Below, one piece after another: positions 10,961 through 17,603 of a stretch of DNA of 64,000 nt (position 1 is its first letter; every line of letters starts with the position of its first letter). Made by a program: the position numbers and the translations under genes. The DNA is from an uncultured Saprospiraceae bacterium. GTDB lineage: Bacteria; Bacteroidota; Bacteroidia; Chitinophagales; Saprospiraceae. The notes beneath the pieces are model-generated. The model made no database searches and was not told the DNA's origin. It was given only the letters and a program-made list of their open reading frames with translations. The DNA lies in NCBI GenBank assembly GCA_938007965.1, contig CALLMH010000016.1:1-64000 (forward strand), in the 5' to 3' direction.

Positions 10961-11461
10961 TTAATCACCAAGCGAAAAAATAATATCTCCTGTATGCATT
11001 ACTTCCATATTAAATGCTTGGCTATTGGCGGGATCATATTTTCCATCAGCGAGGTTTTCTCCAGCCATTATGTATATGATAAGATCTTCGTCTATTCGAG
11101 CTACTGATTTTTTTACCGTCACCCCATCAGAGATTGTACTGGCTACTGGTTTGCGAGATATCAGGTTGCCCAATTTATCGAGTGTGACCAAGATGTACTC
11201 ATATCGCATCAATCCTCCTTTCCAATAAAGTAAAGCATGAAATTCTTCAGTTTCAGCAATTTTTAAAATGGGTACAAATTCTGTAAATTCATCAAACTCT
11301 TCACTATTCTCCCACTTGATGATGTATGCTTCGATGATAGAAGCAGGTAGTACTTTATTCACGGTCTCCGCTGTCATCACCAGATCTTCTGTGACTTCTA
11401 GCGGCAATTCTACCGCTGGAAAGAATCCTAATAGATCTTCTAGTCTTATGTTTTTTGCCAT
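10961..11461 (-). CDS. Conserved-looking hypothetical protein, 166 aa
   Basis: A soluble, acidic protein of 166 residues without signal peptide, membrane segment or known motif. The pattern of short strands around LLYWKGGLMRYEYILVTLDK (residues 83-102) suggests a mixed alpha/beta or beta-propeller-like single unit, but this is only an impression. Start MAKNIRLEDLLGF is preceded by an A/T-rich stretch, and a -7 box lies further upstream at 11550-11557. Function unknown. Confidence 0.7.
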   Translation of the reverse strand: MAKNIRLEDLLGFFPAVELPLEVTEDLVMTAETVNKVLPASIIEAYIIKWENSEEFDEFTEFVPILKIAETEEFHALLYWKGGLMRYEYILVTLDKLGNLISRKPVASTISDGVTVKKSVARIDEDLIIYIMAGENLADGKYDPANSQAFNMEVMHTGDIIFSLGD

Positions 11462-11695: not shown

Positions 11696-12340
11696 CTATC
11701 TCTTCAAGAACAAGTTGATCGCTTCCGTACGATTGTTGACTTGTAACTTATGGTAGATCTTGTGAATGTGCTGCTTTACAGTCCCAATAGTGATAGATAG
11801 TTTGGTGGCAATCTCTTTGTAGAGTAATCCCTGAGCAAGTTCTTCCAATATTTCATATTCTCGCTCAGTGAGGGGTAGATTTGTTGCTTTTGCTTCTGCT
11901 TTTTCATTTTGTTGTATAGAAAATGATTCTATTACTTTCCTAGCGATGCTCGGACTCATCGGCGATCCACCATTATATAGCTCTTTAGCCGAATCGATAA
12001 TCTTATCGGGATTTGCATTTTTGAGAATATAGCCTTTGGCTCCGGCTTTTAGACTTTGGAATATCTTGTCATTATCTTCGAATACAGTAAACATGCAAAA
12101 TTCTGTATCGGGCATCAGCTCGCGCAGTGTGATGATAGCCTGTATACCTGAAACTCCCGGTAATCCTATGTCAGATATCACGATATCAGGTGGGTTGATA
12201 GGTAAGAAAGCGATGGCCTCTTCAGCATTGTGGTAGACTTGGGTGCAAGAGGTGTACTCACTATCATTGAAGTGGTTTTTGAGCTCTAGTGCGATCTCTT
12301 TGATGTCTTCGATGATGGCTATTTTGATGATTTTGTCCAT
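11696..12340 (-). CDS. NarL/LuxR-type two-component response regulator
   Basis: Receiver domain (residues 1-125) with acidic pair E11-D12, phosphoacceptor D57 in VISDIGLPG, and the conserved Lys in GYILKNA. A LuxR/GerE helix-turn-helix follows (about 150-210: LTEREYEILEELAQGLLYKEIA...IGTVKQHIHKI). The frame extends upstream to an ATG at 12394, but receiver domains normally start a few residues before the first strand, so the ATG at 12340 (MDKIIKIAIIED) is preferred. It is divergent from the desaturase gene and probably partners the histidine kinase at 15792-17603. The intergenic palindromes are good candidates for its binding sites, including one near its own start. Confidence 0.88.
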   Translation of the reverse strand: MDKIIKIAIIEDIKEIALELKNHFNDSEYTSCTQVYHNAEEAIAFLPINPPDIVISDIGLPGVSGIQAIITLRELMPDTEFCMFTVFEDNDKIFQSLKAGAKGYILKNANPDKIIDSAKELYNGGSPMSPSIARKVIESFSIQQNEKAEAKATNLPLTEREYEILEELAQGLLYKEIATKLSITIGTVKQHIHKIYHKLQVNNRTEAINLFLKR

Positions 12341-12456
12341 ATCGGCACAGGGTTTTAGAGGTGTATAGTTACGTAATATTACAAAGTTAGTCATATATCC
12401 GATTTGGTGGCAGCAAAAATTTATGACTGCAAGATGCGATGATGAGGTGAGTTGAG

Positions 12457-12478
12457 ATGTATAACTTTAGTTAGGGTG
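12457..12478. promoter_or_regulatory. Degenerate third copy of the 22-bp palindrome
   Basis: ATGTATAAC-N4-GTTAGGGTG keeps 8 of 9 bases of the left half and the first 4 of the right half of the operator found at 12560 and 13644. It lies 116 bp upstream of the preferred response regulator start, and 62 bp upstream of the alternative one, so it may mediate autoregulation. Confidence 0.4.
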
Positions 12479-12559
12479 AGTGTGAAGAATACGCAAGATT
12501 ATTGTCTTTTTCTAATGAATGATGTGCCTTGTGGTCATAAAAACGGGACTTTTTGAGTT

Positions 12560-12581
12560 GTGTATAACAAAAGTTATACAC
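12560..12581. promoter_or_regulatory. Palindromic operator upstream of the desaturase gene
   Basis: Perfect 22-bp inverted repeat GTGTATAAC-N4-GTTATACAC with AAAA in the centre. A copy 1.08 kb away (13644-13665) is identical except for the outermost base, and the identity extends 6 bp to the left. Its centre is 35 bp upstream of the centre of the -7-like box, i.e. around -42, the usual place of a class II activator. Confidence 0.75.
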
Positions 12582-12601
12582 CCCAAAAGATACGCTCGAT
12601 T

Positions 12602-12609
12602 TACCTTGG
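12602..12609 (+). promoter_or_regulatory. -7-like box of the desaturase gene
   Basis: TACCTTGG, one mismatch from TAnnTTTG, starts 21 bp after the operator, the same spacing as at the methyltransferase promoter. A weak box with an activator at -42 fits activator-dependent transcription. Confidence 0.45.
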
Positions 12610-12632
12610 TGTGAAAATTAACAGCACACACA

Positions 12633-13634
12633 ATGTACCCTAATAATCCAATGCCTATCAGATACTATCAGAAAACGTTGGCGCACACTATACCATCGGA
12701 AGCTTATAAACCAGCTTACTACAAATTGTTGTATATGTCCATTCATGCAGTTTGGATATTTGGCTTGATGGGGATGATTTCGATTTCTTCTTCTTGGCTA
12801 TGTATTCTCTTTATCTCTGTATTGATCGGATTTTCTATTGTGTGTCTGTTTTTATATTCTCACGAGTTGTCTCATGGTGCAGTCATCAAAAAAAGAAAAG
12901 TAACTTATCTAATAAAAAACTTCTTTTGGGCATTTAGTGGTATCCCACCTACAGTATGGGATCGTGTACATAATCATACGCATCATCATACAATGAATAC
13001 CCCAAATGATCCAGATCGAAAGACTCATATATCTGAGAAAAACATATGGAATGATATTTATAATCTTTTTATTTATCCCAACAAAGTCATAAGATATTCA
13101 TTGACGATTGGATTTGCAATGGTGTTTTACTCAGTGAAGCATACCGTTGCCGTATTCTACAGTGATGCGGAAAAACCAGCTATCGTAACCTATAGACCTT
13201 CCTACAACAAAAAGCAAAAGCGAAAAGTAATCATCGAGATTTGCTACATTATATGCTTTTGGTTATCTATTTGGTATTTGATAGGAATAGAAAAAGGTGT
13301 TATCATGTCTGCGGTTTGTTGGGTTTCGTATTCATCATTTGTGATCATATTCATCATTACCCAACATCTCGGACGACCTCTCTATAAAGATGTGGCAGAC
13401 CCACTCCTAACCTCCACATCGGTGATCATCCCACGGTGGCTGGATCGGATTATAGATTGGCATTCATTCCATTTAGAGCATCATATGTTTCCAAGTATAA
13501 ATTTTGATTATTATCCCCAATTAAGCAAGAAGATTGAGAATAAGTATCCTCAAAAATACCACAGAATCCCATTCTTCAAAGCATTGAAAGACACCTTCAA
13601 GAATGGTGTCTACATAGAAGATCCTTTTCATTAA
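12633..13634 (+). CDS. Membrane fatty acid desaturase
   Basis: A di-iron membrane desaturase of 333 residues with all three histidine boxes: H77ELSH81, H113NHTHHH119 and H277SFHLEHH284. Hydrophobic segments at about 32-75 and 160-250 form the membrane-embedded part. Such enzymes introduce double bonds, or sometimes hydroxyls, into acyl chains of lipids with O2 and an electron donor. It is followed by a PhcB-like methyltransferase whose promoter carries the same operator, so the two should respond together. Substrate and regiochemistry cannot be read from the sequence. Confidence 0.87.
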   Translation: MYPNNPMPIRYYQKTLAHTIPSEAYKPAYYKLLYMSIHAVWIFGLMGMISISSSWLCILFISVLIGFSIVCLFLYSHELSHGAVIKKRKVTYLIKNFFWAFSGIPPTVWDRVHNHTHHHTMNTPNDPDRKTHISEKNIWNDIYNLFIYPNKVIRYSLTIGFAMVFYSVKHTVAVFYSDAEKPAIVTYRPSYNKKQKRKVIIEICYIICFWLSIWYLIGIEKGVIMSAVCWVSYSSFVIIFIITQHLGRPLYKDVADPLLTSTSVIIPRWLDRIIDWHSFHLEHHMFPSINFDYYPQLSKKIENKYPQKYHRIPFFKALKDTFKNGVYIEDPFH

Positions 13635-13643
13635 CCCTGAGTT

Positions 13644-13665
13644 TTGTATAACAAAAGTTATACAC
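13644..13665. promoter_or_regulatory. Palindromic operator upstream of the PhcB-like gene
   Basis: TTGTATAAC-N4-GTTATACAC, the second strong copy of the 22-bp palindrome. The 29-bp windows 12554-12582 and 13638-13666 differ at one base. It lies in the gap after the desaturase stop and 62 bp before the methyltransferase ATG. Confidence 0.75.
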
Positions 13666-13685
13666 CATATGAGTAACTACTAATT

Positions 13686-13693
13686 TAAATTTG
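13686..13693 (+). promoter_or_regulatory. -7 promoter element of the PhcB-like gene
   Basis: TAAATTTG matches TAnnTTTG exactly, starts 21 bp after the palindrome and ends 34 bp before the ATG. Confidence 0.6.
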
Positions 13694-13727
13694 CCATCAA
13701 CAAAAACAAAATAACAACTAAAATCAA

Positions 13728-14675
13728 ATGAAAACATCAATCAGCACCAAAGCCTATTCCCCAGTCTATCACGAGACTACTAGATTATTAGATAGATGCC
13801 TAGATCTCATCAATCAAGATTCGCTTTACGAAGGATTTTCAGCTTTACTGATCGGTCTTAGAGGGATGTATGCTTCGGGCGATTCGGAAGTATTATCGGA
13901 AGAATTTCAGCAGTTTTGCTTAGCTCACCCAATCTATGAAGTATTGAAGACTGAACCCACAGTAGCACAATCACAGTCAAAACCTCGTGGATATGCAGGG
14001 GATGCAGATCTGATAGATTACTTTTATAGATTGAGAGGTTGCGACATGCGAACTTCCTATCGGGATAGAGAGCTTCATAATATTGCAATCGATAACTCAT
14101 CTGGCGCTTCTGTCCGATGGAGGGCAAAGCATTTGTCAGAATTGTTCGCAGAAAGAAAGGCTAAGAAAGGAGAAAAAATATCATGCTTGTCCGTAGCATC
14201 AGGTCATATACGAGAAATCAGCTACCTACATAACCCCCAAGAGATCTTCGAACGCTTCATCGCACTTGATCAAGATAATACATCAAATGATGAAGCTAGA
14301 AGGTCTCACCCACATGATTTTCTACATATCATAGATAAGTCGATATCGTACATCATCAAAGATGGTTTGAAAGAACAAGAATTTGATTTTGTCTATTCTG
14401 CTGGCTTGTTTGATTATCTGAATGAAAAACTAGCTGCCAAACTCATCCAAAAACTATATGCAAATGTATCGGAAGGGGGTATACTCTTGGTTCCTAATTT
14501 TGCCAAAGGGATACTTGAGCGTGGCTACATGGATATATTCATGGATTGGAAGCTTATCTATAGAAATGAAACTCAAATGCTTGAACTTGCTGAGACGGCG
14601 GGCGTACCAGCTGATAAGATAAGGTTATATCGTGATCCGATGTGCAATGTGATCTATATGAGAATGGAAAAGTGA
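13728..14675 (+). CDS. PhcB-like SAM-dependent methyltransferase
   Basis: A 315-residue protein with a helical N-terminal part, a K85-P-R-G-Y-A-G-D92 motif, and a class I methyltransferase core starting at LSVASGHIREIS near residue 154 with an acidic strand end in FIALDQD. The PRGYAGD signature and layout resemble the family often annotated as 3-hydroxypalmitate methyl ester biosynthesis protein (PhcB); recognition is from memory. PhcB O-methylates 3-hydroxy fatty acids to make a quorum-sensing signal in Ralstonia. Here the gene has its own operator-controlled promoter and lies between a desaturase and a histidine kinase. Alternative: a methyltransferase for another lipid or small molecule. 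Confidence 0.7.
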   Translation: MKTSISTKAYSPVYHETTRLLDRCLDLINQDSLYEGFSALLIGLRGMYASGDSEVLSEEFQQFCLAHPIYEVLKTEPTVAQSQSKPRGYAGDADLIDYFYRLRGCDMRTSYRDRELHNIAIDNSSGASVRWRAKHLSELFAERKAKKGEKISCLSVASGHIREISYLHNPQEIFERFIALDQDNTSNDEARRSHPHDFLHIIDKSISYIIKDGLKEQEFDFVYSAGLFDYLNEKLAAKLIQKLYANVSEGGILLVPNFAKGILERGYMDIFMDWKLIYRNETQMLELAETAGVPADKIRLYRDPMCNVIYMRMEK

Positions 14676-14752
14676 AAAACATGAAATAAAATGGCGATAA
14701 AATGAGAATCGTTTCTTACTTTAGTGTCAATAACATCAAAAAACCAAATTTT

Positions 14753-15169
14753 ATGTCGCAGAGTGCTTACAACGCGTCTACGTCTGTGCAAGACGTTGAC
14801 CCTGATCATATTTATCGTATTAATGATGGATTATTTTCAGGGCAAGAAATTATAAACCAAATAAATAATCCGCACATTGTTGCAATTTTAGGAGCCGCAG
14901 GCTTAGGGTTTGTCGTAGGCTGGTTATTGGCTTTTGTCAATAAATTCGTGGATAAGACCAAGATCAATAGTACGTATTTTGTTTCCATATTCACTACTAT
15001 CTTCGGTGGTGTAGTGATTGGTTTTTACAATAGTTCAGAAGTATTGTTGGGTACATATGGAGTTGGATTTTTTGTGGGCTTTATTTTCTACAGCCTTATA
15101 TATGCTCGGATAGATACTAAGAAAGGTGAAAAGTTGAAAAAATTAGTATACCCGTATTATGAGATTTAA
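14753..15169 (+). CDS. Small membrane protein with three predicted helices
   Basis: From the preferred start (MSQSAYNAS) the product has 138 residues. The frame also allows an ATG at 14702 that adds 17 polar residues. Hydrophobic segments at about residues 42-62, 72-94 and 102-122 should cross the inner membrane, and the C terminus is basic. No family recognised. It sits between the methyltransferase and the genes leading to the histidine kinase, with 77 bp and 122 bp gaps and no obvious terminator, so a common transcript is possible. Confidence 0.6.
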   Translation: MSQSAYNASTSVQDVDPDHIYRINDGLFSGQEIINQINNPHIVAILGAAGLGFVVGWLLAFVNKFVDKTKINSTYFVSIFTTIFGGVVIGFYNSSEVLLGTYGVGFFVGFIFYSLIYARIDTKKGEKLKKLVYPYYEI

Positions 15170-15291
15170 GGATGCTTCTTTTGGTATCCTATTTATCATA
15201 GAAATGAATTCTACAGTTATGAGCTTATAACTACGATGCAAATGCTCGAACCGATTAAAATTGTCTATTATTTAATTTTAAAAAACTAAAA

Positions 15292-15804
15292 ATGTCTAAA
15301 AAACCAACTATTGAAAAAATTGATGAAAAGTATACCATTGTTCCTTATCTCAATACACAGCAAGTACTACATACAGAACCTTTGGTGGTCAAAAGAAAAG
15401 ACAAGAATGATGATAGCATCGTAGATGAAATCTATGAAGGTATGATGGTAGTGACAATTCACATTAAAAAAACATCAATGGGTACAAATGATATTCCTGT
15501 AAAGATAGATGAGGCAGATATATATGTCAAATCTTTCACACGGAGTATAAATTTAAAAATCGATAAAGTAGAGTTTACTAAAGGAGATACTCAATACGAT
15601 TACTTTATTAATTTGAAGCTTAGCGTGTCTGATACTAATAATAAAGTAGTATCTGCGAAAATTGAAATGCCAGAACAAGGTGTTCTGTGTAAAAATAATG
15701 CCCTAAATGATGTACACGTGACCCTTGATCCTGATCTCAGACCAGGAAGAAATGAGTTTATTCTTTCAGGCAACCAAATCTGTAAATTTCGTTGGAGAAT
15801 TTAA
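15292..15804 (+). CDS. Hypothetical beta-rich protein overlapping the histidine kinase gene
   Basis: A 170-residue soluble protein, predicted mostly beta, without signal peptide or known motif. Its last 13 bp overlap the start of the histidine kinase gene, which indicates translational coupling and a shared function, for instance in sensing. The upstream 122 bp contain only a short palindrome (AGTTAT-N6-ATAACT at 15215-15232) that does not match the operator at 12560. Function unknown. Confidence 0.65.
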   Translation: MSKKPTIEKIDEKYTIVPYLNTQQVLHTEPLVVKRKDKNDDSIVDEIYEGMMVVTIHIKKTSMGTNDIPVKIDEADIYVKSFTRSINLKIDKVEFTKGDTQYDYFINLKLSVSDTNNKVVSAKIEMPEQGVLCKNNALNDVHVTLDPDLRPGRNEFILSGNQICKFRWRI

Positions 15805-17603
15805 GGAAATTATTAATAATCCTATTCTTTTTTATTGTTAGCATCTGCCAAGCACAAGTTGATGATATATTCCGCTGTGTCAGAGAGTCTAATATTGAAA
15901 CTTGTCTCAAGAGTAGTAAATCAACAATAGACCCAGTAACGGCAGAATTACTTACTGCTTATATATCAATAGATCAAGTAAATACAAGTAATGAAAATAT
16001 AACTCTACCTCGGCCAATCACTACAATAGATTCAGCATTGTACTATTTGATAGAGGCTGATTACATTCTTAAATCAGGTAATGCAAATGAAGAAAGTGCA
16101 TTTCTATATTATAAAAATGCACTTTCTTTAAATATAGGAATAGAGATAAGATCGGAAATTCATAGAAAAATCGGTAATTATCTATCGCTTGCATCTTCTG
16201 ATACATTGTTGAATGTGTATTATATAGATAACTATAAAGCGATTTGTTATGATACTTTAGATTGTTTGTGGAGTGAATTCATAGCCTTAAAATTTGAAGT
16301 CCAGAAAGCTAGAATTGGTGAAAGAACTCCAAGATTCGATTTACGACCTTGGGAGCGCATTTTATCGGTATCAGAGGCTAATCAATATCATAATCTGTTC
16401 TTGGATGTATTATGTTTTTATGCTTCTTTTCTTGTTTATTTTCCGGATCAACTCGATAAATCCATAGAAATAAATAAGAAGGGATTGGTTGTCGCAGATA
16501 TGATAGGAGAAGAGTGTCTCCAACAGCATGAATTTCTATTGAAAGCGAATATAGCCAATGTTAAAATGAATCAAGGAGAATATGCTCAGGCTTTGGAAGA
16601 ACTTCGAAGTTTTGACAACGAAGTAATCACTGTGCAGAAGTTAGATAATCAGGCCATATACTATAATTGGATTGCGGAATGTTATGCACATCTCAACATG
16701 CCGGATTCTGCCGTCACCTACATGAAAATAGCAAATAGGGCAGAAAAATCATCTGAGAATTCTAAAATATCGAAAGCGGTACGTGATATCGATGAAAAAT
16801 ATCGAAACGACGAGCTCAAAAACAATTTATTAATAGAAGGAAGAAAGAGAAAAGAGCAACAATTGTATTTTGGTATAGCCGTTTTCGTTTTTCTTTTAGT
16901 CCTGCTTTTGGGATTTTTTATACTCAATTCATATCGGTTAAAAAGAAAAATACTGGAAGAGTCTTTCTCTAGAAGTCAAACAGAGAGTAAATTAAAAACA
17001 CTCACTGCCCTCTCCTCAGAACGTACCCGTATCGCTGGAGAAATGCACGATGACCTCGGCGGAGGACTCACGACCATCAAGTTCCTATCTCAAAATCTCC
17101 ATCGGAAGATCGAAGATGATGAACAAAAAATCCAGCTCCAAAAAATAGTCACGCACAGTAAAAACCTCGTCAATAATATGAGCGAAATTATATGGGCTAT
17201 GAATGCAGGTTTTGATACGGTAGACAATCTAGTCGCCTATAGCAGAAGATACGCTTATGAGTACTTAGAAGATTATGCTATAGATCTATCTTTTAGGTCA
17301 GGTGGTGATATTGGAGATATCGAGATATCGGGAGAGAAGCGTCGAAATATATTCTTGGTGATCAAGGAAGCATTGCACAATATAGTAAAGCACAGTAATG
17401 CTGACATCGTCAATATCAGATTCGATATGAATGGAAACCAACTGACCATACGCGTCGCTGATAACGGTAGAGGTCTCCCTGACGAACTACGTCTCAATGC
17501 CAATGGACTCAAGAGCATGCGTTCTAGAATCGAAAGCATGGGCGGCAAAATCACTTTTACAAATAATAAAGGCCTAATCGTCGAAGTGTTAATACATCTG
17601 TAG
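15792..17603 (+). CDS. TPR-containing sensor histidine kinase, NarL (HisKA_3) type
   Basis: The 603-residue protein has a signal peptide (residues 1-21), a periplasmic helical region with TPR-like repeats (about 60-330), one transmembrane helix (about 357-380), a coiled linker and a HisKA_3 dimerisation domain with H419 in EMHDDLGGGLT. The HATPase_c domain follows: N-box EALHNIVKHSNA, G-box ADNGRGL and NGLKSMRSRIESMGG near the end. It should autophosphorylate and pass the phosphate to a LuxR-type receiver; the divergent regulator at 11696 is the only candidate in the window. It starts inside the preceding gene and is convergent with the GCS2 gene 14 bp further on. Confidence 0.9.
   Translation: MENLRKLLIILFFFIVSICQAQVDDIFRCVRESNIETCLKSSKSTIDPVTAELLTAYISIDQVNTSNENITLPRPITTIDSALYYLIEADYILKSGNANEESAFLYYKNALSLNIGIEIRSEIHRKIGNYLSLASSDTLLNVYYIDNYKAICYDTLDCLWSEFIALKFEVQKARIGERTPRFDLRPWERILSVSEANQYHNLFLDVLCFYASFLVYFPDQLDKSIEINKKGLVVADMIGEECLQQHEFLLKANIANVKMNQGEYAQALEELRSFDNEVITVQKLDNQAIYYNWIAECYAHLNMPDSAVTYMKIANRAEKSSENSKISKAVRDIDEKYRNDELKNNLLIEGRKRKEQQLYFGIAVFVFLLVLLLGFFILNSYRLKRKILEESFSRSQTESKLKTLTALSSERTRIAGEMHDDLGGGLTTIKFLSQNLHRKIEDDEQKIQLQKIVTHSKNLVNNMSEIIWAMNAGFDTVDNLVAYSRRYAYEYLEDYAIDLSFRSGGDIGDIEISGEKRRNIFLVIKEALHNIVKHSNADIVNIRFDMNGNQLTIRVADNGRGLPDELRLNANGLKSMRSRIESMGGKITFTNNKGLIVEVLIHL

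What the first reader, a model, noticed from the sequence alone, without database searches (positions are those of the whole stretch)
11696..17603. Candidate lipid-signal or lipid-modification system: regulator, desaturase, PhcB-like methyltransferase, two unknowns, TPR histidine kinase
In Ralstonia a fatty acid methyltransferase (PhcB), a histidine kinase (PhcS) and a response regulator (PhcR) form a quorum-sensing system with a 3-hydroxy fatty acid methyl ester signal. Here a PRGYAGD methyltransferase is co-regulated with a desaturase and flanked by a matching kinase/regulator pair, plus a three-helix membrane protein and a soluble protein translationally coupled to the kinase. A desaturated fatty acid methyl ester signal, or membrane-lipid remodelling under a sensor, is a reasonable hypothesis. 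I know of no described system with this gene set in Bacteroidota.
Basis: inference. Interest (0 to 1): 0.82.

Follow-up and report, generated by a model that had tools for sequence, protein, structure and literature searches.

The report
Kinase-controlled desaturase and PhcB-family methyltransferase
A small genetic circuit in a Bacteroidota bacterium appears to switch on two lipid-tailoring enzymes, one of them related to the enzyme that makes a known bacterial communication signal, and it may be an undescribed bacterial signalling system.

Summary
The six genes are present as described. The methyltransferase (MT) is PhcB-family: 17 aligned members share 10 invariant residues and include the MT of a phc-like operon on a Paraburkholderia graminis plasmid. 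The system is not PhcBSRQ: its kinase is a TPR/HisKA_3 type and its regulator a NarL/DesR-type DNA binder. Its wiring can be read from the DNA. A palindrome, TATAAC-N4-GTTATA, lies before the regulator, the desaturase and the MT. In this and two related genomes all nine exact matches to the box pattern lie inside the locus. In 36 of 48 boxes a Bacteroidota -7 element lies at exactly 22 nt (1.0 expected). Two further genomes carry the box before an MT on another contig than the regulator. The desaturase lies beside a PhcB-family MT in all three genomes where it was found. Such MTs lie within 3 kb of a signalling gene in 17 of 27 loci, against 1 of 40 for ordinary methyltransferases. Most likely this is a self-reinforcing two-component switch for making a methylated unsaturated acyl compound, plausibly a signal. 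The product and the kinase's ligand are unproven.

The parts
11696..12394 (-). NarL/DesR-type response regulator (RR): receiver with Asp75 + GerE helix-turn-helix; Met19 may be the true start
   Evidence: Pfam; Asp75; nearest RRs of other genomes of the family 57-69% identical, nearest other RR of its own genome 31%
12459..12476 (-). RR box before the regulator gene: CCCTAACTAAAGTTATAC; no good -7 element at 22 nt (3 of 6)
12562..12579 (+). RR box before the desaturase: GTATAACAAAAGTTATAC
   Evidence: exact only here and at 13646 in the genome
12602..12609 (+). -7 element TACCTTGG (5 of 6 to TAnnTTTG), 22 nt after the box
12633..13634 (+). membrane acyl desaturase, three His boxes (HELSH 77-81, HNHTHHH 113-119, HLEHH 280-284, read from the sequence)
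   Evidence: PF00487 114.5 bits; nearest named model Delta(10) desaturase DesB 140 bits, far below its cut-off of 500; 55-56% identical to those of G540 and G150
13646..13663 (+). RR box before the MT: GTATAACAAAAGTTATAC
13686..13693 (+). -7 element TAAATTTG (6 of 6), 22 nt after the box; the only 0-mismatch match to TAAC-N4-GTTATA-N23-TAnnTTTG in the genome
13728..14675 (+). PhcB-family SAM-dependent methyltransferase (KPRGYAGD; VASGHIREI; GLFDY; W274, R279)
   Evidence: alignment of 17 members; tree; model of pLDDT 56 resembles class I methyltransferases, mostly small-molecule O-methyltransferases
14702..15169 (+). 155-aa membrane protein with about three helices (sequence reading); no box; role unknown, probably not part of the core
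   Evidence: no homologue in L040 or L044; LapA_dom 27.8 bits, cut-off 28
15292..15804 (+). 170-aa protein that overlaps the kinase start; unlike small genes stand in the same place before the kinases of L040 and L044
   Evidence: poor all-beta model, pLDDT 38; no family
15792..17603 (+). sensor kinase: signal peptide (sequence reading), exported TPR-like region, one membrane helix near 359-378, HisKA_3 with His419, HATPase
   Evidence: Pfam; DesK cores among the nearest solved structures; His419; helix position

Best explanation
A dedicated, self-reinforcing two-component switch. An exported TPR-type sensor kinase phosphorylates the NarL/DesR-type regulator (inferred). The regulator binds the palindrome TATAAC-N4-GTTATA, 22 nt before the -7 element and so centred about 43 bp before transcription start (shown as a sequence pattern; binding and start site inferred), and activates its own gene, a membrane acyl desaturase and a PhcB-family methyltransferase. 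The two enzymes act in one pathway (supported by recurrent pairing) to give a methylated, unsaturated acyl compound, most likely a carboxyl methyl ester (inferred from PhcB). That compound, or the process, feeds back on the kinase as a signal (inferred; the least certain step).
For: Wiring: all nine exact box matches in three genomes (about 11.5 Mb) lie inside the locus. Of 48 boxes of 16 bits or more in the window and 41 RR-related loci, 36 have a -7 element at exactly 22 nt in at least one direction; shuffles give 1.0 on average, 5 at most. In the own genome the two best box + -7 matches are the MT (0 mismatches) and the desaturase (1); the rest have 2 or more. Independent tests: in G538 an exact box on another contig than the RR lies about 60 bp before an MT 45% identical to the window's; in G545 a weaker box lies before an MT 46% identical. 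Full palindromes: 23 in 12 RR-bearing genomes, 1 in 12 genomes without an RR hit. Pathway: desaturase next to a PhcB-family MT in all three genomes in which I found it. Signal: a signalling gene lies within 3 kb of the MT in 17 of 27 PhcB-family loci against 1 of 40 controls; after collapsing near-relatives 11 of 21 (p 8e-6). The same switch goes with MTs of two different subfamilies, as if the activity, not one gene, is what is kept.
Against: No product or substrate evidence. The kinase lacks the multi-helix sensor of the phc-like kinase. The RR family also stands in 38 fetched loci without MT or desaturase, so its theme may be broader than lipids. G467 has the RR and an MT but no box, and so has G115, whose RR is 44% identical. 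For the degenerate box pattern the total count in RR-bearing genomes (33) does not exceed the reversed-pattern control (32), and in the 12 others it is 6 against 9; only full palindromes, placement and spacing discriminate. The regulator's own promoter and 11 other boxes of the 48 have no good -7 element at 22 nt.
Confidence: 0.5

Rival explanations
1. Membrane-lipid homeostasis working like Bacillus DesK-DesR: the kinase senses the envelope, and desaturase and MT remodel the cell's own lipids; no intercellular signal.
For: HisKA_3 kinase and NarL-type regulator with a palindrome before a desaturase; DesK cores are among the nearest solved structures. The starts of the abstracts of PMC3996569 and PMC7465017 (seen in a search listing only) describe DesK-DesR control of unsaturated fatty acid synthesis.
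Against: In L044, G538 and G545 the boxed gene is the MT, with no desaturase relative in the stretches fetched, so the MT, not the desaturase, is the commoner output. The kinase has an exported TPR-like region, not a membrane thermosensor. The desaturase is very rare (2 of 396 genomes of the order, the own one included) and the own genome has two other desaturases.
Confidence: 0.27
2. The enzymes make a private secondary metabolite or surface compound (pigment, glycolipid, protective lipid) under envelope control; any resemblance to PhcB signalling is only by family.
For: The fold is that of general class I methyltransferases; L044 has a glycosyltransferase and other genes after the MT; other boxed genes include exported proteins and an unannotated ~200-aa protein that in G512 is followed by another methyltransferase.
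Against: The strong family-wide link of these MTs with sensors, not seen with ordinary methyltransferases of the same genomes.
Confidence: 0.17
3. A genuine PhcBSRQ quorum-sensing system acquired by a Bacteroidota bacterium.
For: PhcB-family MT near a kinase and a regulator.
Against: Kinase type, regulator type and gene order all differ (make-up of the phc operon from passages of PMC8578825); the window MT is not specifically grouped with the phc-like MT.
Confidence: 0.02

Closest known systems
PhcBSRQ system (Ralstonia; phc-like operon on a Paraburkholderia graminis plasmid, NZ_CP024936)
   Same: homologous MT (30% over 281 aligned positions) with two-component partner genes
   Different: The phc-like kinase has a multi-helix N-terminus (my reading) and HisKA (E 3.6e-8); PhcR and PhcQ have no DNA-binding domain (PMC8578825 passages); no desaturase among the genes shown. 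Here: TPR/HisKA_3 kinase and DNA-binding NarL-type regulator
DesK-DesR-des (Bacillus subtilis)
   Same: HisKA_3 kinase and NarL-type regulator with a site before a desaturase (the Bacillus side is recalled, apart from abstract starts seen)
   Different: sensor architecture; PhcB-family MT as co-target; Bacteroidota promoter with -7 TAnnTTTG
Box-bearing HK-RR loci of the same family (this work, L084-L121)
   Same: same RR family; a box of 16 bits or more in 24 of the 38 loci; related HK found in 32 of 38
   Different: other genes behind the boxes; no MT or desaturase relative in those 38 loci

Membership tests
PhcB methyltransferase family | sequence homology to a PhcB-type MT from a phc-like operon | tested here: met
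   tblastn E 3e-14; blastp 30% over 281 positions, pairwise E 9e-22; 10 invariant columns besides Met1 across 17 members that I chose. Ralstonia PhcB itself was not in hand. The P. graminis MT has Arg at position 22, where PMC6989110 (passages) reports a PhcB R22C mutation at a conserved residue; the positions it reports for PhcS (161) and PhcQ (154) do not hold the same residues in L155
PhcB methyltransferase family | makes a 3-hydroxy fatty acid methyl ester | not testable with these tools
   needs an enzyme assay
PhcBSRQ system | PhcS-like sensor kinase | tested here: not met
   window kinase is HisKA_3 with an exported TPR-like region; the phc-like kinase of L155 has HisKA and a multi-helix N-terminus
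PhcBSRQ system | receiver regulators without DNA-binding domain (PhcR with kinase domain, PhcQ) | tested here: not met
   window RR has a GerE helix-turn-helix; make-up of PhcR and PhcQ from PMC8578825
PhcBSRQ system | gene order phcB-S-R-Q | tested here: not met
   window order RR(-) / desaturase-MT-155aa-170aa-HK
PhcBSRQ system | PhcA LysR regulator downstream | not tested
   not searched
DesK-DesR system | HisKA_3 kinase + NarL-type regulator | tested here: met
   DesK cores among nearest structures
DesK-DesR system | regulator site before a desaturase gene | tested here: inconclusive
   a site is there as a sequence pattern; binding not tested
DesK-DesR system | multi-helix membrane thermosensor without exported domain (recalled) | tested here: not met
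   signal peptide by reading, weak TPR hits, one helix near 359-378
FA_desaturase (PF00487) | family score and three His boxes | tested here: met
   114.5 bits over 29.7; boxes read from the sequence
Two-component pair | phosphotransfer between this HK and this RR | not testable with these tools
   only indirect: a related HK lies in 32 of the 38 RR loci fetched, within 2 kb of the RR in all but L104

The most novel reading that the evidence does not exclude
PhcB-family methyltransferases are a widespread class of autoinducer synthases paired with interchangeable receptors (multi-helix histidine kinases and hybrid kinases, SpoIIE-type phosphatases, GGDEF-EAL proteins, propeller and TPR kinases) across Bacteroidota, Cyanobacteria, rhizobia and other groups; the window holds a Saprospiraceae version whose signal is an unsaturated acyl methyl ester made by a desaturase + MT pair and controlled by a compact promoter code (TATAAC-N4-GTTATA, 22 nt, TAnnTTTG).
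Probability: 0.33. Interest if true: 0.85.

Novelty: new variant of a known kind. Interest (0 to 1): 0.62.

Why it matters
Lipid-type quorum signals made by PhcB are described from Ralstonia. Evidence that the same enzyme family sits in sensor-controlled loci in Bacteroidota and several other groups would open a new class of candidate signalling systems, and the promoter code found here makes the circuit directly testable.

Tried and rejected
Viral contigs gave no relative of the MT. The plasmid collection gave no desaturase relative at E 1e-20. No solved structure matches the MT alone at E 1. The structure models are poor (MT pLDDT 56; 170-aa protein 38) and were not used for substrate claims. 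I first thought the kinase-regulator pair itself was specific to MT loci; the survey of the RR family showed it is wider: no MT or desaturase relative lies in the 38 other RR loci fetched (L084-L121, up to about 9 kb on a side, shorter at contig ends). The 1-mismatch site on contig 35 is no promoter by what I saw: no listed ORF starts within 500 bases after it (ORFs running off the locus were not listed). The three RR-box MTs are not one clade (3 changes), nor are their RRs (2 changes), so I dropped the idea of one inherited cassette. A search for the composite promoter with up to 3 mismatches is swamped by chance (104 matches in the own genome, 192 for the reversed pattern). An earlier spacing count used 25 promoters that I picked because a gene follows (19 of 25); I replaced it by the unpicked count. 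Paper searches for PhcB-type systems in Bacteroidetes, Saprospiraceae, Chlorobium or Bacteroidota found two papers, one naming 3-OH PAME for Ralstonia only in the passages I read (PMC11069264), one unrelated by title; the library holds open-licence papers only.
Full report
WHAT IS THERE. By Pfam they are a Response_reg + GerE regulator (RR), an FA_desaturase, a protein with only weak general methyltransferase hits (MT), a 155-aa membrane protein, a 170-aa protein without family, and a HisKA_3 + HATPase kinase (HK) with weak TPR hits. The tool puts it in the same family as G150, whose contig C23 has the length (29942) and the locus of JAHDGJ010000028.1, titled Saprospiraceae bacterium, so I call the family Saprospiraceae.

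THE MT IS PhcB-FAMILY. tblastn with the window MT finds 144 plasmid records, 125 of them Rhizobium, and Paraburkholderia graminis NZ_CP024936 at E 3e-14. There the MT (468 aa) is followed by an ATP-binding protein and two response regulators; Pfam shows HisKA + HATPase_c, Response_reg, Response_reg. This resembles phcB-S-R-Q. PMC8578825 (passages with the abstract) describes PhcR as receiver + kinase domain and PhcQ as receiver; in L155 both regulators have only a receiver by Pfam, so it is a variant. PMC6989110 (passages) reports a PhcB R22C mutation at a residue conserved in Ralstonia, Cupriavidus and Paraburkholderia; the L155 MT has Arg22, while the positions given for PhcS (161) and PhcQ (154) do not hold the reported residues. 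Ralstonia PhcB itself was not available. In the alignment of 17 members that I chose the invariant residues besides Met1 are P86, Y89, G91, D92, G159, G226, D229, Y230, W274, R279. The profile search of solved structures and Foldseek on a poor model (pLDDT 56) give general class I methyltransferases, among them phosphoethanolamine, juvenile hormone acid and small-molecule O-methyltransferases; they do not fix the substrate.

CONSERVED SETTING. MT homologues occur in 16 of 199 genomes of the family. The desaturase (E <= 1e-60) occurs in 2 of 396 genomes of the order, the own one included, and a pattern-based scan of one genome for each of 84,980 species found one, the same G150 (that scan did not list G540, see below, so it is no proof of rarity). 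In G150 (L040) the order is 194-aa, HK, RR (67% identical), 447-aa, desaturase (56%), MT (24%); in G178 (L044) it is 153-aa, HK, RR (64%), MT (22%). The nearest other RR of the own genome is 31% identical, so the 64-67% RRs are not chance paralogues. In G540 a desaturase 55% identical starts a few bases after the stop of a PhcB-family MT; that genome was found through its MT, so it is not an unbiased test.

THE BOX. The two exact GTATAACAAAAGTTATAC sites of the window are the only two in the genome. The sister loci show the same palindrome. The pattern YNTAACNAARGTTATA has nine exact matches in the three genomes (4.19, 3.7 and 3.6 Mb), all nine in these loci: before RR, desaturase and MT in the window; before 194aa-HK, 447aa-(desaturase) and MT in G150; before 153aa-HK, RR and MT in G178. 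I made the pattern from eight of these nine sites, so what counts is that none lies elsewhere. In the same call, with 1 mismatch allowed, the reversed pattern is commoner than the pattern (37 against 13, 34 against 13, 19 against 7). A weight-matrix scan gives 60 sites of 11 bits or more over all loci held then, 34 in reversed sequence; boxes of 16 bits or more lie in 24 of the 38 other RR loci. Twelve RR-bearing genomes hold 23 full palindromes TATAACNAARGTTATA; of 12 genomes without an RR hit, 11 hold none and one, G516 of the window's genus, holds one. For the degenerate pattern the forward totals (33 and 6) are not above the reversed control (32 and 9): a result against the box being rare as such.

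THE PROMOTER. PMC9723704 (passages) gives TAnnTTTG, at -12 to -5, as the sigma-A -7 box of a flavobacterium. I took every box of 16 bits or more, with room on both sides, in the window, L040, L044, L084-L121, L283, L284 and L328: 48 boxes in 30 loci. In 36 of 48 there is a match of at least 5 of 6 to TAnnTTTG at exactly 22 nt, in one direction or the other; the next best offset, 21 nt, has 6; shuffled flanks give 1.0 on average and at most 5. The 12 without it include the RR promoters of the window and of L044 and the 447-aa promoter of L040. L108 and L109 are near-copies. In the window the MT promoter matches the composite perfectly and the desaturase's has one mismatch; all other places of the own genome have two or more.

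INDEPENDENT TESTS. G538 (RR 65% identical) has no MT near its RR, but an exact box on another contig stands about 60 bp before an MT 45% identical to the window's; by the contig positions the two are at least some 80 kb apart. I then searched 49 RR-bearing genomes for MTs: 4 have one. G538 has the box. G545 (MT 46% identical over its readable part) has a weaker box, 17.0 bits, with GAGATTTG at 22 nt; MT and RR lie near ends of different contigs, so their true distance is unknown. G467 has no box, though a hybrid kinase lies 1.5 kb after the MT. In G540 the MT is at a contig edge, so its upstream could not be read. None of the 14 other Saprospiraceae MT loci (L030-L039, L041-L043, L045) has a box of 11 bits or more; of their genomes only G115 is among the 73 listed RR-positive ones, at 44% identity (the list of negatives is cut, so I cannot say that each was searched).

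FAMILY-WIDE LINK WITH SENSORS. Within 3 kb of the MT there is a kinase, receiver or SpoIIE-type gene in 17 of 27 loci of the phylum (window included) and in 1 of 40 loci of ordinary Methyltransf_11 enzymes from the same genomes (Fisher p 3.7e-8; within 500 bp 13 of 27 against 0 of 40). Counting the six f38 loci once and L036/L037 once gives 11 of 21 (p 8e-6). Caveats: the detection profiles were seeded partly from these loci and then iterated; the 40 controls are part of the matches listed; several contigs are short. Of the 12 genomes with a match in the phylum sample of 395 two with split matches (G718, G797) were not fetched. L031 and L032 count as negatives although propeller-type proteins cut off by contig ends adjoin their MTs. 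In six f38 genomes the neighbour is a 703-727-aa hybrid kinase with a multi-helix N-terminus by my reading (two checked by Pfam). Outside the phylum, a Pseudanabaena plasmid has HK + RR beside the MT and Rhizobium and Nitratireductor plasmids a GGDEF phosphodiesterase with a membrane N-terminus, whereas the Pantoea plasmid shows no such neighbour.

EVOLUTION. In the MT tree the window MT groups with L030, then with L031, L032 and the Rhizobium, Nitratireductor and Pantoea MTs (100/99), whereas the MTs of L040 and L044 lie in a different, fully supported group. The RRs of the three loci are not one clade either: L044's is sister to L088's of G538. The association was therefore kept or remade with different MTs.

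MECHANISM. Shown: gene content, family membership of the MT, box positions, box spacing, recurrence. Inferred: phosphotransfer, binding, activation (from the position over the -35 region), shared pathway of desaturase and MT, methyl ester product, signal role. My own odds: wiring about 0.9, a shared acyl pathway about 0.65, a signal role about 0.5.

KNOWN OR NEW. It works partly like DesK-DesR and makes use of a PhcB-type enzyme, but meets the membership test of neither system in full. I found no description of it in the search listings (of these papers I read passages of PMC6989110 and PMC11069264 only). I rate it a new variant of a known kind.

Noticed in passing
L173, L175, L177, L178, L179, L181 (G689, G837, G777, G670, G825, G845): In six small genomes (2.0-3.1 Mb) of family f38 the PhcB-family MT lies beside a 703-727-aa hybrid kinase with a multi-helix N-terminus; a possible synthase-receptor pair of its own.
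   Followed up: partly
L033:1-3841 (G101): A 470-aa PhcB-family MT in a cluster with a SpoIIE-type phosphatase bearing a multi-helix N-terminus, a STAS-like protein and an anti-sigma-like ATPase (the last two named by sequence reading): partner-switching output in place of a kinase.
   Followed up: partly
L152 and L154 (Rhizobium sp. SU303, Nitratireductor kimnyeongensis plasmids): MT divergent to a GGDEF phosphodiesterase with a membrane N-terminus; 125 Rhizobium plasmid records hold an MT match.
   Followed up: partly
L284:3576-4876 (G512), L106:15092-15688 (G004), L030:6560-8148 (G024): An unannotated ~200-aa protein, followed in G512 and G024 by another methyltransferase; box-led in G512 and G004; in G024 the pair stands directly before the PhcB-family MT. 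No Pfam or NCBIfam hit for the ~200-aa protein.
   Followed up: partly
L084-L121: A Saprospiraceae RR family with the same box but varied partner kinases (short TPR or ~1000-aa propeller type) and varied genes behind the boxes; a locally rewired regulator family.
   Followed up: partly
window 10961-11461 (-): 166-aa protein without family; a 46% identical stretch of 70 residues lies at the edge of L045, about 7 kb from a PhcB-family MT.
   Followed up: no
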